Part shown: one piece after another, positions 41,974 through 46,764 of the stretch
Layout: every line of letters begins with the position of its first letter
Position numbering within the stretch: position 1 is the stretch's first letter
Assembly: GCF_003449015.1 (NCBI RefSeq)
Contig: NZ_QRGD01000003.1
Span: 248,001-312,000 of the forward strand
Length of the DNA stretch: 64,000 bases
Direction of reading: 5' to 3'
Source of the DNA: Aureibaculum luteum
GTDB lineage: Bacteria > Bacteroidota > Bacteroidia > Flavobacteriales > Flavobacteriaceae
Position numbers and translations under genes: made by a program
The notes under the pieces: model-generated
What the model was told of the DNA's origin: nothing
Seen by the model: only the letters and a program-made list of their open reading frames with translations
Databases searched by the model: none

Positions 41974-42606
41974 TTAATTCTTTATTTCAACATATATAAC
42001 AGTATCTCCCATTGGGTCTGGTGCTAATTCAGCATGATACTCTTCTGTGGCAATGCCCGTACTTTTATTTATAATATAAGCAGCTTCGTTAAACTCTCCG
42101 TATGATTTTTCGACATAATAATGATCTCCTCTGTCATAAATAATCATACCATTATAATTTGCATAATACTCCCAATCAATTGTTTCAACAACTGCTTGTT
42201 TATCTAAAGCCTTTATCACAAATTTGATTTGATCTAAAACAGCATCATCATATTTAAAAAATTGAATTTCCTCTAAATTGTATTTTACAGTTTCTGGGTT
42301 TTTACGAGGCTGTAAATAATTTGAACCATTTAAAAATACGGTTACATTATAAAAATATACAGTGTTTTCTGGTATAAACGTTATAGGATTTTGAAAAGCA
42401 ACATAAATATCATTTTCAGATGCCATAACCTTTATACTTTTAAAATAACTAGTATCAACCTTTTTATCCAATTGTTTTAATGCCAGGTTAACAATTGCTT
42501 GTTTACCTAAACTTATGGTATTTTTTACTTCTTTTTTTGACATGTTTTTATTTTGTGCCATTACATAATTACTTACTATACAAAACAACAGTATTTTAAA
42601 TTTCAT
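41974..42606 (-). CDS. Exported protein of unknown function
   Basis: A 210-residue protein with a short signal peptide (MKFKILLFCIVSNYVMAQ). The mature part is mixed alpha/beta, rich in Tyr and Asp, with no motif I recognise; segments such as IDWEYYANYNGMIIYDRGDHYYVEKSYGEFN suggest a beta-rich fold. It is 7 bp from the lipoprotein gene upstream and 1 bp from the small helical gene downstream, so the three are surely co-transcribed. Function unknown. Confidence 0.75.
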   Translation of the reverse strand: MKFKILLFCIVSNYVMAQNKNMSKKEVKNTISLGKQAIVNLALKQLDKKVDTSYFKSIKVMASENDIYVAFQNPITFIPENTVYFYNVTVFLNGSNYLQPRKNPETVKYNLEEIQFFKYDDAVLDQIKFVIKALDKQAVVETIDWEYYANYNGMIIYDRGDHYYVEKSYGEFNEAAYIINKSTGIATEEYHAELAPDPMGDTVIYVEIKN

Positions 42607-42612
42607 ATTTTC

Positions 42613-43143
42613 CTATTTAAAAGTTAAACCAACAATGATTCTTTTAATCCACTCCACTTGTTCGTTTTCTTTGTAGTATTCTGTGTTGAATCTGAAATTT
42701 CCTGGATTTCCAAATTGTTTCCAACTTTTATTATCTGAATTTCGAAGATACATCTTTACGGTAAAATTAGGTGTGTTATCTGTCAATGGCTTATTGTAAA
42801 CGAGTTCTATTTTTACCATATATTCATCAATATCTGAATCACTTTTTAATGCTTTAAAAGCATGTATTTCAGGGTAATATTTAGACAAATCAGAAAGATC
42901 AACCTCAGCGTTATAAGGTAGAATGCCATTCCAGTCATTTTTCTTCAAAGAGAGTACAAATTCCTTATTTTGTAATTGAGAATAAGCTTCTGCTATTATC
43001 TTTTTTGATTGGTTTGTTTGAACTGAATCTATAACCTCAACAAAGTATGTTTGTTTTTTTATTTCTACATCAGAAGTTAACCAACTACAGCTCGTTAAAA
43101 AGAATGCAAAGGCTATCCCCAAAAAATATACGCTACTTCTCAT
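42613..43143 (-). CDS. Lipoprotein of unknown function
   Basis: A 176-residue protein with lipobox LTSC (Cys19) after a hydrophobic signal, so probably membrane-anchored in the envelope. The mature part holds VEVIDSVQTNQSK and alternating strands such as YMVKIELVYNKPLTD and FTVKMYLR. No recognised domain. It lies 12 bp after the 298-residue unknown gene and just before the exported protein, forming part of a small envelope sub-cluster downstream of the ketosynthase fusion. Confidence 0.75.
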   Translation of the reverse strand: MRSSVYFLGIAFAFFLTSCSWLTSDVEIKKQTYFVEVIDSVQTNQSKKIIAEAYSQLQNKEFVLSLKKNDWNGILPYNAEVDLSDLSKYYPEIHAFKALKSDSDIDEYMVKIELVYNKPLTDNTPNFTVKMYLRNSDNKSWKQFGNPGNFRFNTEYYKENEQVEWIKRIIVGLTFK

Positions 43144-43155
43144 TTCTTGTATTTA

Positions 43156-44052
43156 TTATGCAGACTTTGGCGTCATTATGCCATCGTTAGACTTCCCTAA
43201 TTTTAAATTGACCAATATTTCATGTAATGTTTCTGATGCCAAGCCATGCAGCACCAACCTGTAGGCCGCACTATAAGTTGTTGCGGGTACCATTGGATGC
43301 TTGTTATTTACCAAACCTAAATGCCCAGGAGTACCTAAAATTTGTGCTGTATAAATAGCAATGGTTTCATCTAACTGTAAAGAATTTGAAGCTCTTACAA
43401 AATCATTAGCCGTTAAAAACAACTGATAAAATGGTGTAAACAATTCAATAGCTGAACGCAAATCTAAGATGTTGGTCCATTTATTTGGAAATTGAATATG
43501 ATCAAATTGATCTTCAGTAATCATTGATAAATCCAAATCACTCTTTTGTTTTATGGTGAGATTTTTTGTCTTCAGTTCACTATTCAAATTAATAACAAAA
43601 TTGTATAAATTCAAATCGTGTAATAGAAATAAATCATCTTTAACATCTTCGAAATTTTTCGGTCGCAACGGACTTGACTTGGTTTCTACACCATCTATAT
43701 TAGCCCAGATAAAGGATAAAATATCACTACCTACATGAAAATGTCTAAAGATTAATAAATTGGCATCAGGACTCACCCATGTCTTTAAACCCCAAGCTAA
43801 CATTCGGTGTAATATTTTAGACGAGTTGAATAGCTTTGGAAAAATAAACTTAAAAATATGGATGAAAAACATCGTGATTTTTGACCATAACTGAACAAAG
43901 GGCATTAAATATCTTGCGGACTTTGAATTGTTATCTCGCATCAATGCCTGTTTTGTTTTTTCATTGATAGGAATACTACTATCCAAATACATCGCTAACC
44001 ATGGATTTGGGTCGCGATCATCATGTTTTGAAATATCTAATTCGTTTGACAT
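43156..44052 (-). CDS. Unknown protein with conserved-looking histidines, linked to the ketosynthase fusion
   Basis: I cannot assign a characterised family to this 298-residue protein. There is no signal peptide; a hydrophobic stretch lies at about 50-72 (FVQLWSKITMFFIHIFKFIF). Histidine-rich spots include FRHFHVGSD (about 103-111), LLHDLNLYNF and GTPGHLGLVNNKHP, and a late helical part has DETIAIYTAQILG. The mix of His and acidic residues in helices could bind metal, but this is speculation. It follows the ketosynthase fusion after 128 bp and may work in the same pathway. Confidence 0.75.
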   Translation of the reverse strand: MSNELDISKHDDRDPNPWLAMYLDSSIPINEKTKQALMRDNNSKSARYLMPFVQLWSKITMFFIHIFKFIFPKLFNSSKILHRMLAWGLKTWVSPDANLLIFRHFHVGSDILSFIWANIDGVETKSSPLRPKNFEDVKDDLFLLHDLNLYNFVINLNSELKTKNLTIKQKSDLDLSMITEDQFDHIQFPNKWTNILDLRSAIELFTPFYQLFLTANDFVRASNSLQLDETIAIYTAQILGTPGHLGLVNNKHPMVPATTYSAAYRLVLHGLASETLHEILVNLKLGKSNDGIMTPKSA

Positions 44053-44097
44053 TTTTTTGTGTTTTTCTGTTCTGTTTTAAAAATTGACACTATTTAT

Positions 44098-44118
44098 ATC
44101 CCGCTCAAATAGCGGGAT
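44098..44118. other. Stem-loop between the ketosynthase fusion and the 298-residue gene
   Basis: ATCCCGCT-CAAAT-AGCGGGAT, a perfect 8-bp GC-rich stem. On the minus strand a T-rich tract follows some 15 bases later, so it may act as a partial terminator or a processing stem that lowers expression of the downstream genes. A weaker stem TCTCG/CGAGA lies beside it. Confidence 0.5.
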
Positions 44119-44180
44119 TAGTTCAACTTACAATTTTAAGTTCTCTCGCAAAAAAACGAGATTCTCAAAACTGAGTTTCA

Positions 44181-46037
44181 CTAATAACTACCTAATTCTT
44201 CTAATTGCATTTCATATAATTTCGCCGTCGTTTTTGCCGTTTTGGCAATTTGTTTGGCTAAATCCATATTCATAAATGGATGATTTAGGGCTTCTTCTAA
44301 GCGATGGAAATGATTTTCATCTGCAACACCGTGATACGTAAAAAAGGACACTTGCTCTTTGTCCAACTCCAGCTGATCCTTTATCATATCTCCCCAATAC
44401 CCTGCCAATCGCTTTCCAATACCTTCAATAATAAACATGGCTCCTAGTAAATCAATCGGATTGTTTTTACTGGCTTGTTGAAACATAAAAGAAGTTAAGG
44501 CTACACTTCCAATATTTTTATTACCTGTTTGAATGTCTTCCAAAGATTCGCCTAAAGCTACAAAATTTCGTTCTAAGATTTGAAAATCCTTATGTTCTGC
44601 AGCCGTGTGTTTTATAAAGGCAGAGCGTAACTCGAACAACTCAATATCAATATTTGAAGCGGCTCTCGAAATCCATTGTGAACCATCAATTACTTGTTGT
44701 CGTAAATCATGTAATAATAATTTGTAATCTGACAGACTTAACTTACCACTATGAATTTTGGACACCACTGGAACTTGTAATAATTTCGTTTCAAAATCGA
44801 TCCAAATTTGCGTGAGTTGACGCACTAACCATTCAGATGTCGGATTTTTATCCACTACTAACTCAGGGGCTTCAATTTTTCTTTTTGGATACACTTTTAC
44901 GTCTTCATCTTGACCAACAACTATTAATTGCATAAAAGATGTGATAAATCGACCACTTTCTGGCACCATACACAAAATGGTTTCACCAGCCTTTAGCTTA
45001 CCAGAATACAACAATTCTTCTAACATGATATATATAGAAGCCGCACCTGTATTTCCTTTTGTAGTTAGGTTACTAAACCATTTTTCATCAGAAATTAAAG
45101 CACCACCTTTGGTCATCAAATCCTTAATCGGCTTTTTAAAATACTCAGATGAATAATGACAGCATAACCAATCGGTTTTATCAGGATTAACCATTCCTTT
45201 ATCAATCAATTCAAAATAATGAGCTACGCCAACTTGAATTACTTTATCCAGTAGTCGGATATCTTGTTTTAGATTGATAGCTCCTGCTTTGGAAGCCGAT
45301 TCATAATCTGGGTAATCTAACCAAGTTGGTTCTTTTTCATTTTTATTATCATTTTTACCTGTAAACATACAGACTGGAAATTCATTGGCATGAGACTTTA
45401 ACTCCATCCAATCAATTCTTAATGATAAACCCTTTGTATTTTTTTTATTAGAAAGTACCATCGCTCCTGCCCCATCAGAAAGCATCCATCGTAAAAATTC
45501 TGTATCAAAAGGTACTGACTTCTGTTCTTGCCCATCAAATCTTGAACCTTTAAACAGGCGACTAGCAAACTCACTACCCACCGCTACGGCCTCTTGCTTT
45601 TCTTTGTATTTTATTTGGGAAAAAGCAGTTTTTAACGCCATCATTCCACTCGCACAAACACTTTGAAAACTGGCCAATTCACATTTATTAAAATCCGTTA
45701 AGGCATGCACCATACTCGCGAAACCTGGAACTGGTAAATCACCTTGAGTTGTTCCTGTTGATAGCAGTTCTATTTCAGTAACGTTAGCTCCACTTTTATC
45801 CAACGCTATTTCAATTGCATTGGCTGCCAATTCAGCATTACTATGTGTACTTTCTTGATTCTTATTCAAGGCATAATACCTCGATTTTATACCGTTTTGT
45901 TTAAGAATACGTTCTTTTACCCCACTTTTCTTACCATTAATCAATCCCAAATAATCTTCCATTTGGTTGTTCTCAATGGGTTTATTCGGTAAAAACACAC
46001 CTATACCTGTAATATATACTTCTTCTTTCTCTATCAT
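44181..46037 (-). CDS. Ketosynthase III fused to a heme-oxygenase-like (candidate diiron) domain
   Basis: A 618-residue two-domain enzyme. Residues 1 to about 375 form a beta-ketoacyl synthase III (thiolase fold) with a plausible triad Cys128 (SVCASGMMAL), His294 (CCHYSS) and Asn329 (KGNTGAAS). Residues about 405-618 form a helical TenA/heme-oxygenase-like domain with Glu481-His482 (AAEHKDF), Glu538 (IIEGIG) and His569-xxx-Asp573-xx-His576, the HxxxDxxH pattern of HDO-type diiron oxidases such as CADD and UndA. The first domain should make a C-C bond between acyl groups; the second could oxidise the product. The gene starts 1 bp after a membrane hydroxylase gene. The real product is unknown. 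Confidence 0.88.
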   Translation of the reverse strand: MIEKEEVYITGIGVFLPNKPIENNQMEDYLGLINGKKSGVKERILKQNGIKSRYYALNKNQESTHSNAELAANAIEIALDKSGANVTEIELLSTGTTQGDLPVPGFASMVHALTDFNKCELASFQSVCASGMMALKTAFSQIKYKEKQEAVAVGSEFASRLFKGSRFDGQEQKSVPFDTEFLRWMLSDGAGAMVLSNKKNTKGLSLRIDWMELKSHANEFPVCMFTGKNDNKNEKEPTWLDYPDYESASKAGAINLKQDIRLLDKVIQVGVAHYFELIDKGMVNPDKTDWLCCHYSSEYFKKPIKDLMTKGGALISDEKWFSNLTTKGNTGAASIYIMLEELLYSGKLKAGETILCMVPESGRFITSFMQLIVVGQDEDVKVYPKRKIEAPELVVDKNPTSEWLVRQLTQIWIDFETKLLQVPVVSKIHSGKLSLSDYKLLLHDLRQQVIDGSQWISRAASNIDIELFELRSAFIKHTAAEHKDFQILERNFVALGESLEDIQTGNKNIGSVALTSFMFQQASKNNPIDLLGAMFIIEGIGKRLAGYWGDMIKDQLELDKEQVSFFTYHGVADENHFHRLEEALNHPFMNMDLAKQIAKTAKTTAKLYEMQLEELGSY

Positions 46038-46038
46038 A

Positions 46039-46764
46039 TTAATGTCTTTTTATATAGCAATTGTAAAATTTATCTAATGCATTTGAGGCAAATCCATAAT
46101 TGGCTCTCCCTTTTGAGTGATGTTCATTATGATGTGTACCAAAAAGCCTCCATGAATTGCCATAACCATCCCCAAAGCGATAATTACAATGTCCTGCATA
46201 ATTCAACAAGACACTCGCCAAAGGGTATAGAAATACGCCAACAATTGAAAATGGCACAAATAACATAATGATCAACGGAACAGTACTCAACAATAAGGCT
46301 TCAAACCAATGAAAACTATATACTGACCACACGGTAGGAATTCTAGATTGATGATGTACAAAATGGACGCGTTTCATAAAAAAAGGCAAATGCATTATTC
46401 TGTGTACTATAAAAAAGTGCACCTCATTCCAAAGCGTTAACACCACAACTGCCAATATCACATTAAAAAAAGTATCGGGTAGTAGTGTAATTTTATCATT
46501 TCTAATTAAATAAATAATAGGTAATACTGAAAATCCAAAAACAAAAATAGATTGCAAGGAATGTTTGATTTCAAAACTTAACTGCTTTCGTTTTACCTTT
46601 TTATTGATAATCTTATGAAGCAATCCTTTTTTATGTAACAGCTTACAAACTCCTAAAAATACAGGTGCTACTACAAAATACAAAATCATAAAATACGCAA
46701 ATGTTAGTCCGTAAAGACTAAAATAAGATGTACTATAAATTATGTTTTCAATAATCTCTTGCAT
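46039..46764 (-). CDS. Fatty acid hydroxylase/sterol desaturase superfamily membrane enzyme
   Basis: A 241-residue integral membrane protein with four or five hydrophobic segments and the histidine clusters of the non-heme diiron hydroxylase superfamily: HFFIVHRIMH (about 126-135), HFVHHQS (about 144-150), and GTHHNEHHSKG (about 209-219). It should hydroxylate or desaturate a lipid or isoprenoid at the membrane. The following ketosynthase-HDO fusion begins 1 bp after its stop, so they are translationally linked. Carotenoid hydroxylase is a possible alternative role, but no carotenoid gene is near. Confidence 0.88.
   Translation of the reverse strand: MQEIIENIIYSTSYFSLYGLTFAYFMILYFVVAPVFLGVCKLLHKKGLLHKIINKKVKRKQLSFEIKHSLQSIFVFGFSVLPIIYLIRNDKITLLPDTFFNVILAVVVLTLWNEVHFFIVHRIMHLPFFMKRVHFVHHQSRIPTVWSVYSFHWFEALLLSTVPLIIMLFVPFSIVGVFLYPLASVLLNYAGHCNYRFGDGYGNSWRLFGTHHNEHHSKGRANYGFASNALDKFYNCYIKRH

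What the first reader, a model, noticed from the sequence alone, without database searches (positions are those of the whole stretch)
43156..46764. Ketosynthase III-HDO fusion coupled to a fatty-acid-hydroxylase-like enzyme: candidate unknown lipid pathway
Seen: a 618-residue protein joins a KAS III domain with a plausible Cys128-His294-Asn329 triad to a heme-oxygenase-like domain that has HxxxDxxH (569-576) and Glu481 and Glu538. It begins 1 bp after a four-histidine-cluster membrane hydroxylase gene and is followed by an unknown protein with HFHVG. Known: stand-alone KAS-III-like OleA does head-to-head acyl condensation, and HDO enzymes such as UndA oxidatively decarboxylate fatty acids. Inference: condensation and oxidative tailoring are built into one chain, with a membrane hydroxylase acting before or after, giving an unusual lipid, ketone or hydrocarbon. 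No acyl carrier protein or typical fatty-acid operon gene is adjacent.
Basis: partly seen in the sequence, partly recalled or inferred. Interest (0 to 1): 0.72.

Follow-up and report, generated by a model that had tools for sequence, protein, structure and literature searches.

The report
Fused lipid-ring synthase and iron oxidase
A bacterial protein joins a ketosynthase of the kind that makes resorcinol lipids to an oxygen-using, probably iron-containing domain, travels with the same partner genes, and probably makes an undescribed ring lipid.

The parts
46039..46764 (-). Membrane fatty-acid-hydroxylase-superfamily protein (PF04116), 241 aa, usual but not constant partner
   Evidence: upstream of the fusion in 16 of 19 loci; His clusters invariant in 15 of 15 compared
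44907..46037 (-). Ketosynthase domain of the fusion, residues 1-377, StlD/DarB-type, triad C128/H294/N329
44181..44870 (-). Haem-oxygenase-like (HDO) domain of the fusion, residues 390-618, with stop codon
   Evidence: Pfam PF14518; AF2 model pLDDT 81.7, pTM 0.83, one of five models; Foldseek and VIA-align
44586..44609 (-). Core-helix-1 candidate ligands His477, Glu481, Asp484
   Evidence: invariant in 19 of 19 fusions and in the split HDO; Asp484 lies at the spacing of the His of a CADD-family protein
44424..44426 (-). Core-helix-2 candidate ligand Glu538
44310..44333 (-). Core-helix-3 candidate ligands His569, Asp573, His576
43156..44052 (-). DUF6999 (PF22523), 298 aa, constant partner of unknown fold and function
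   Evidence: next same-strand gene after the fusion in 18 of 19 loci and one gene further in the other

Best explanation
The locus is a compact biosynthetic cassette for a ring lipid, scattered over distant genomes. The ketosynthase half of the fusion joins two fatty-acid-derived thioesters and closes them into a cyclohexane-1,3-dione, as StlD and DarB do (inferred from family). The HDO half uses a metal site and O2 to oxidise that ring in place of the separate DarA, most simply by aromatising it to a dialkylresorcinol, possibly going further (inferred). DUF6999 carries out a required further or supporting step (co-occurrence shown, role unknown). In most of the loci read a membrane hydroxylase then hydroxylates chain or ring (inferred). 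The cassette is separate from the flexirubin-type DarB cluster that the same genome also carries (shown).
For: StlD/DarB family: 421.6 bits to NF005293, StlD E 7.4e-76. Fusion and split ketosynthases plus one Streptomyces ketosynthase form a clade (100/100), next to StlD (93/96); all of them with DarB are split from FabH (100/100). Of 25 positions that I chose and printed, nine (R183, M224, Q258, S296, S297, W320, G331, E360, R363) are the same in 13 of 13 fusion/split and 23 of 23 DarB/StlD rows and differ in 6 of 6 FabH rows. HDO fold. HDO as partner of the ketosynthase: adjacent separate genes in Pseudoalteromonas sp. THAF3. DarA-like protein in 9 of 9 searched genomes with stand-alone DarB and 0 of 6 with only the fusion. 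DUF6999: 9 of its 10 genomes among 397 Flavobacteriaceae are the 9 fusion genomes; sought by DUF6999 alone in the class, 7 of 7 new hits sit in the cassette.
Against: No product, metal or activity was tested. The fusion falls below the curated StlD/DarB cut-off (421.6 against 450) and far below the DarB cut-off (384.7 against 550), so its reaction may differ. The core-helix-1 His of known HDOs appears to be Asp here, so ordinary diiron chemistry is not assured. The stand-alone Pseudoalteromonas protein is not recognised by Pfam's Haem_oxygenas_2 model at E up to 0.1; it is called HDO by the record's annotation and by 36% identity to the fusion's domain. Absence of DarA fits equally well a product that is never aromatised. 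Only one of five AF2 models was confident. No acyl carrier protein was recognised among the neighbours scanned in the window.
Confidence: 0.45

Rival explanations
1. The HDO domain acts on the cyclohexanedione but does not stop at, or form, a resorcinol: it cleaves, contracts or hydroxylates the ring and gives a new scaffold that the hydroxylase and DUF6999 process further.
For: Known HDOs cleave C-C bonds, desaturate and rearrange (PMC13108848 section 4). The ligand set is unusual. DUF6999 is kept in 19 of 19 loci read, whereas it was not found in genomes with only a stand-alone DarB such as G016 and G028.
Against: No direct evidence; aromatisation is the simplest reading of DarA's absence.
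Confidence: 0.22
2. The HDO domain works before condensation, UndA- or desaturase-like, making an unsaturated acyl thioester or acid that the ketosynthase uses.
For: UndA acts on fatty acids (abstract of PMC13108848) and is among the fold matches. StlD-type enzymes are recalled, from no call, to need an unsaturated partner. One operon carries an extra fatty-acid desaturase (L165).
Against: The nearest folds are 3dde, HmuO and CADD rather than UndA, though fold proximity shows no function. Dialkylresorcinols are described as made from two fatty acid metabolism intermediates (PMC3949708 passages).
Confidence: 0.15
3. The haem-oxygenase-like domain is metal-free or structural (PqqC/TenA-like), for example binding the product or acting as a cofactorless oxidase.
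For: PqqC and TenA share the fold and need no metal (PMC11363339 passages); both are among the fold matches; a canonical His is replaced.
Against: Seven His/Asp/Glu candidates are invariant in 19 of 19 fusions and in the split HDO, more than a scaffold would need.
Confidence: 0.1
4. One reading: OleA-like head-to-head condensation leading to a ketone or hydrocarbon.
For: Both are thiolase-fold ketosynthases (general knowledge).
Against: The family placement is StlD/DarB; no OleA-named chain is among the 35 solved sequences matched at E up to 0.1. OleA itself was not compared directly.
Confidence: 0.04

Closest known systems
StlD (stilbene ketosynthase, PDB 5gk0/5gk1/5gk2) and DarB (dialkylresorcinol/flexirubin ketosynthase)
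   Same: Catalytic triad and family-wide residues; StlD is the nearest solved relative
   Different: Separate clade, below the curated cut-offs; fused or adjacent to an HDO-like protein; seven columns separate the groups with few exceptions, among them residues 105, 106, 252, 254 and 293; no DarA-like protein in 6 of 6 fusion-only genomes
Haem-oxygenase-like dimetal oxidases (UndA, CADD, SznF, BesC)
   Same: Fold, Glu on helix 2 and His/Asp/His on helix 3
   Different: Asp484 where spacing puts the helix-1 His of the E-H-X-H-D-H motif, plus invariant His477; fused to a ketosynthase
3dde, Shewanella denitrificans Sden_3740, function unknown
   Different: Its helix-1 His (chain position 87) falls on Asp484 if the helix is counted back without gaps from the shared Gly; HMMER's own alignment, which opens a one-residue gap after it, pairs that His with Phe485. 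A stand-alone protein of 239 residues.
Sterol desaturase/fatty acid hydroxylase superfamily (PF04116)
   Same: Profile match and invariant His clusters
   Different: No NCBIfam model reached its cut-off; weak likeness to ornithine-lipid hydroxylase OlsE (22 bits against cut-off 475)

Membership tests
StlD/DarB beta-ketosynthases (NF005293) | Score above the curated cut-off of 450 bits | tested here: not met
   421.6 bits; in 13 genomes the 13 fusions score 417-449 and the 7 stand-alone relatives 551-584
StlD/DarB beta-ketosynthases (NF005293) | Common ancestry with StlD and DarB to the exclusion of FabH | tested here: met
   FabH split off with 100/100; fusion clade next to StlD 93/96
StlD/DarB beta-ketosynthases (NF005293) | Cys-His-Asn triad and family-wide positions absent from FabH | tested here: met
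   nine of 25 chosen positions
StlD/DarB beta-ketosynthases (NF005293) | Formation of a 1,3-cyclohexanedione | not testable with these tools
   needs enzyme assay
DarB of dialkylresorcinol/flexirubin synthesis (NF053539) | Score above 550 bits and DarA as neighbour | tested here: not met
   384.7 bits; the DarA-like protein lies beside the other ketosynthase on contig C45 and was not found in 6 of 6 fusion-only genomes
HDO superfamily (PF14518) | Profile score above the gathering score | tested here: met
   31.9 against 28.9 bits for the window fusion; fusions in all 13 genomes searched pass. The split Pseudoalteromonas protein gave no match at E up to 0.1
HDO superfamily (PF14518) | Haem-oxygenase fold | tested here: met
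HDO superfamily (PF14518) | E-H-X-H-D-H or E-H-X-H-E-H ligand motif (about 85% of groups analysed in PMC11363339 section 10) | tested here: not met
   Helix 2 and 3 ligands kept; helix-1 His replaced by Asp484 by spacing, His477 added; the register rests on spacing and aligned range, not on measured coordinates
HDO superfamily (PF14518) | Dimetal site that activates O2 | not testable with these tools
   needs metal analysis and spectroscopy
OleA (head-to-head condensation) | Sequence kinship with OleA | tested here: inconclusive
   no OleA-named chain among 35 matched solved sequences; no direct OleA comparison was made
Fatty acid hydroxylase superfamily (PF04116), upstream gene | Profile score and His clusters | tested here: met
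   73.9 against 31 bits; invariant in 15 of 15 compared
DUF6999 (PF22523), downstream gene | Profile score | tested here: met
   393.9 against 27 bits; 13 of 13 aligned members match

The most novel reading that the evidence does not exclude
A previously undescribed ring-lipid pathway in which a StlD/DarB-type ketosynthase is physically joined to an HDO with a rearranged metal site (Asp in place of the helix-1 His, with Glu one turn and His two turns before it), so that carbon-carbon ring formation and O2-dependent ring oxidation occur in one protein. DUF6999 would be a new enzyme of the pathway. The pathway would be shared between Bacteroidota and Proteobacteria.
Probability: 0.35. Interest if true: 0.78.

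Novelty: new variant of a known kind. Interest (0 to 1): 0.62.

Why it matters
If right, it adds a new chemical partner to the StlD/DarB ketosynthases (a metal oxidase instead of DarA), a new ligand arrangement and probably a new substrate class (cyclic lipid) to the HDO superfamily, of which only about a dozen members have been validated (PMC13108848 section 4), and a first functional context for DUF6999. The three-gene unit is small enough to express whole, so the product question is directly testable.

Tried and rejected
OleA/hydrocarbon reading: rejected because family placement is StlD/DarB. That the fusion is simply the flexirubin ketosynthase: rejected, since the genome has a separate DarB at 653 bits in a flexirubin cluster. 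That DUF6999 is a distant HDO: no support (hhalign probability 0.3%). DUF6999 has no solved relative up to E 10 and no second Pfam family in its 13 members beyond one chance match. Its structure prediction failed (pLDDT 47), so no fold search was made with it. That the Streptomyces protein after the related ketosynthase is a DUF6999 relative: no support. PHROGs gave no match; a viral-contig scan gave one stand-alone ketosynthase; the viral fold library gave nothing at E up to 0.001. Promoter-like and terminator-like sites are at or below the shuffled mean. That the hydroxylase has merely moved elsewhere where it is not adjacent: not supported, as G259 and G690 hold only distant matches (28-29% identity over about 140 residues) and G664 none. 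The profile comparison with a CADD-family protein covered helices 2 and 3 but not helix 1, and its probability was low (10.7%), so the helix-1 register rests on ungapped spacing and the aligned range; HMMER's alignment to 3dde is off by one residue there. Pseudomonadota could not be surveyed: only a plasmid record and the control genome Caulobacter vibrioides, which rings for DUF6999, StlD/DarB and HDO, adjacency not seen. Rows dropped: G007 and G009 (97-98% identical, same genus) were left out of the set of 19, though both carry the same three genes.
Full report
What is there. The window lies in a genome (G000, 5.10 Mb) whose named near relative is Aureibaculum flavum A20, with a fusion protein 97% identical; I take the family to be Flavobacteriaceae from that name. 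On the minus strand lie, in order of transcription, a 241-aa hydroxylase-like protein (46039-46764), a 618-aa fusion (44181-46037) and a 298-aa protein (43156-44052). Pfam assigns FA_hydroxylase, ACP_syn_III_C plus Haem_oxygenas_2, and DUF6999.

Which ketosynthase. NCBIfam places the first 374 residues nearest the StlD/DarB family (421.6 bits, curated cut-off 450; DarB itself 384.7 against 550; FabH 68.8 against 292.1). The best solved relative is StlD (E 7.4e-76). In a maximum-likelihood tree of 44 rows, 12 fusion ketosynthases, the stand-alone Pseudoalteromonas one and one Streptomyces plasmid ketosynthase form a clade with 100/100 support. It lies next to StlD (93/96), and all of these with DarB are split from FabH (100/100). 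Within that clade the fusions form one group only weakly (70/74), and two rows there (Streptomyces, Pseudoalteromonas) are long branches whose place is unsure. Of 25 positions chosen and printed, nine are the same in 13 of 13 fusion/split rows and 23 of 23 DarB/StlD rows (two of these identical) and differ in 6 of 6 FabH rows; seven columns separate the fusion/split group from DarB/StlD, allowing one or two exceptions per side. The product family (1,3-cyclohexanediones, resorcinols) is taken from the literature on DarB: PMC3949708, passages seen, labels DarB a DAR-cyclase and DarA a DAR-aromatase and cites Fuchs et al. 2013, which I did not read.

It is not the flexirubin enzyme. G000 has a second, stand-alone ketosynthase on contig C45 that scores 653 bits to DarB and sits with FlxA, FlxB and DarH. 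Its neighbour of 312 aa matched no NCBIfam model at E 1e-10 and has only a flavodoxin likeness below cut-off (14.5 against 24 bits); I take it to be DarA by position. That protein was found in 9 of 15 genomes searched, the nine with a stand-alone DarB, and in none of the 6 genomes (G050, G337, G259, G327, G664, G690) whose only StlD/DarB-type ketosynthase is the fusion. The fusion therefore does not depend on DarA. This is the main ground for proposing that the HDO domain supplies the oxidising step. It does not prove it, since a non-aromatic product would show the same pattern.

Conserved unit. Nineteen non-redundant fusion loci were read (window, L022, L025, L026, L085-L092, L159-L165; two close same-genus copies set aside). 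DUF6999 is the next gene on the same strand in 18 of 19; in L165 a fatty acid desaturase gene lies between. A hydroxylase is the next gene upstream in 16 of 19; it is missing beside the fusion in L087, L091 and L092 (in L092 only 639 bases of contig precede the fusion), and in L164 it is cut by the contig end. In those three genomes no close hydroxylase was found elsewhere. Hydroxylase and fusion overlap by 4 bases in 6 of 16. The surrounding genes mostly differ between genera; L089 and L090 share several. One group of loci is free of circularity: searching the class by DUF6999 alone (8 of 395 genomes, one of them G000) led to seven new genomes, and all seven hold the whole cassette. In the same family draw, fusion genomes number 9 of 397 and DUF6999 genomes 10 of 397, nine being the same. 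The tenth, G322 (84% complete), has only the C-terminal three quarters of DUF6999 and no ketosynthase within the 13 kb read. In a draw over the phylum, 4 of 395 genomes have the fusion (G000, G017, G664, G690), two of them outside the class. The cassette is thus rare and scattered, which fits lateral spread or repeated loss.

Split form. On a Pseudoalteromonas sp. THAF3 plasmid, a ketosynthase, an 'iron-containing redox enzyme' and DUF6999 are three adjacent genes in the same order. The ketosynthase is 46% identical over 368 residues, the HDO-like protein 36% in the alignment, and DUF6999 scores 321.9 bits. Against this, Pfam's Haem_oxygenas_2 model does not recognise the middle protein at E up to 0.1. 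No hydroxylase is annotated in the stretch shown. The fusion is therefore a joined form of neighbouring partners, which supports a shared pathway. The control genome Caulobacter vibrioides also rings for all three families, but adjacency there was not seen.

DUF6999. It has no solved relative (E up to 10) and no convincing second Pfam family, and its model failed. Invariant in 13 of 13 sequences are, among others, R103, H104, H145, D146, D197, D228, K251, H252, R265, H269 and E274, a pattern that would suit a metal or acid-base enzyme. That is a guess.

Mechanism, with the standing of each step. Shown: the gene order, family placements, co-occurrence and the split form. Supported by model: the HDO fold. 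Inferred: condensation to a cyclohexanedione; O2-dependent oxidation of it by the HDO domain in place of DarA; chain or ring hydroxylation by the membrane protein; a needed but unknown role for DUF6999. The substrates presumably come from fatty-acid metabolism; no carrier protein was recognised among the eight window proteins scanned (one chance-level Nm-ACP match below cut-off), whereas the related Streptomyces ketosynthase has an ACP gene next to it.

Literature. The listings of searches in a library of open PMC papers, judged by title and start of abstract, showed no paper on a ketosynthase-HDO fusion. DUF6999 had no occurrence in any of the 18 papers, and the 2026 HDO review contains neither 'fusion' nor 'ketosynthase' in its main text. 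Subscription papers were mostly not searched, so this is not proof of novelty. Seen: PMC13108848 (outline, passages, section 4), PMC13232832 (abstract, section 6), PMC11363339 (passages, section 10), PMC3949708 (passages); PMC11965152 was looked up for ligand numbers and gave none.

Verdict. The chemistry should be recast from OleA/hydrocarbon to StlD/DarB-type ring lipid. I rate it a new variant of known kinds, with a probably unusual metal site and an unknown constant partner.

Noticed in passing
L158 6476-7165 (G322): DUF6999 lacking about 75 N-terminal residues and without ketosynthase or HDO in the 13 kb read: possibly a remnant of the cassette.
   Followed up: partly
L165 7424-8191 (G1093): A fatty acid desaturase (PF00487) gene between the fusion and DUF6999, hinting at further lipid tailoring.
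   Followed up: partly
L088 12125-12838 (G327): A second FA_hydroxylase-family gene downstream of DUF6999 (92.4 bits).
   Followed up: partly
L027 (G000:C45:63501-83500): Flexirubin cluster of the same genome with DarB, FlxA, FlxB and DarH.
   Followed up: yes
window 41974-43143: Two same-strand ORFs starting 12 bp after DUF6999 (one a likely lipoprotein by its N-terminus) that are kept in the same-genus copies but not matched in the other loci read.
   Followed up: partly
L097; hits H5-H8; L098: Stand-alone StlD/DarB-type ketosynthase genes on plasmids of Bacteroides, Phocaeicola and Prevotella, and one on an IMG/VR contig.
   Followed up: no
L096 7706-15352: Streptomyces plasmid cluster with a ketosynthase of the same clade, ACP genes, an aromatic-ring-hydroxylase-like FAD enzyme and a P450: possibly an actinobacterial relative of the pathway.
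   Followed up: partly
fusions L022, L088, L089, L090: Two-residue insertion between the Asp and second His of the helix-3 motif (HxxxDxxxxH) in 4 of 19 fusions.
   Followed up: partly
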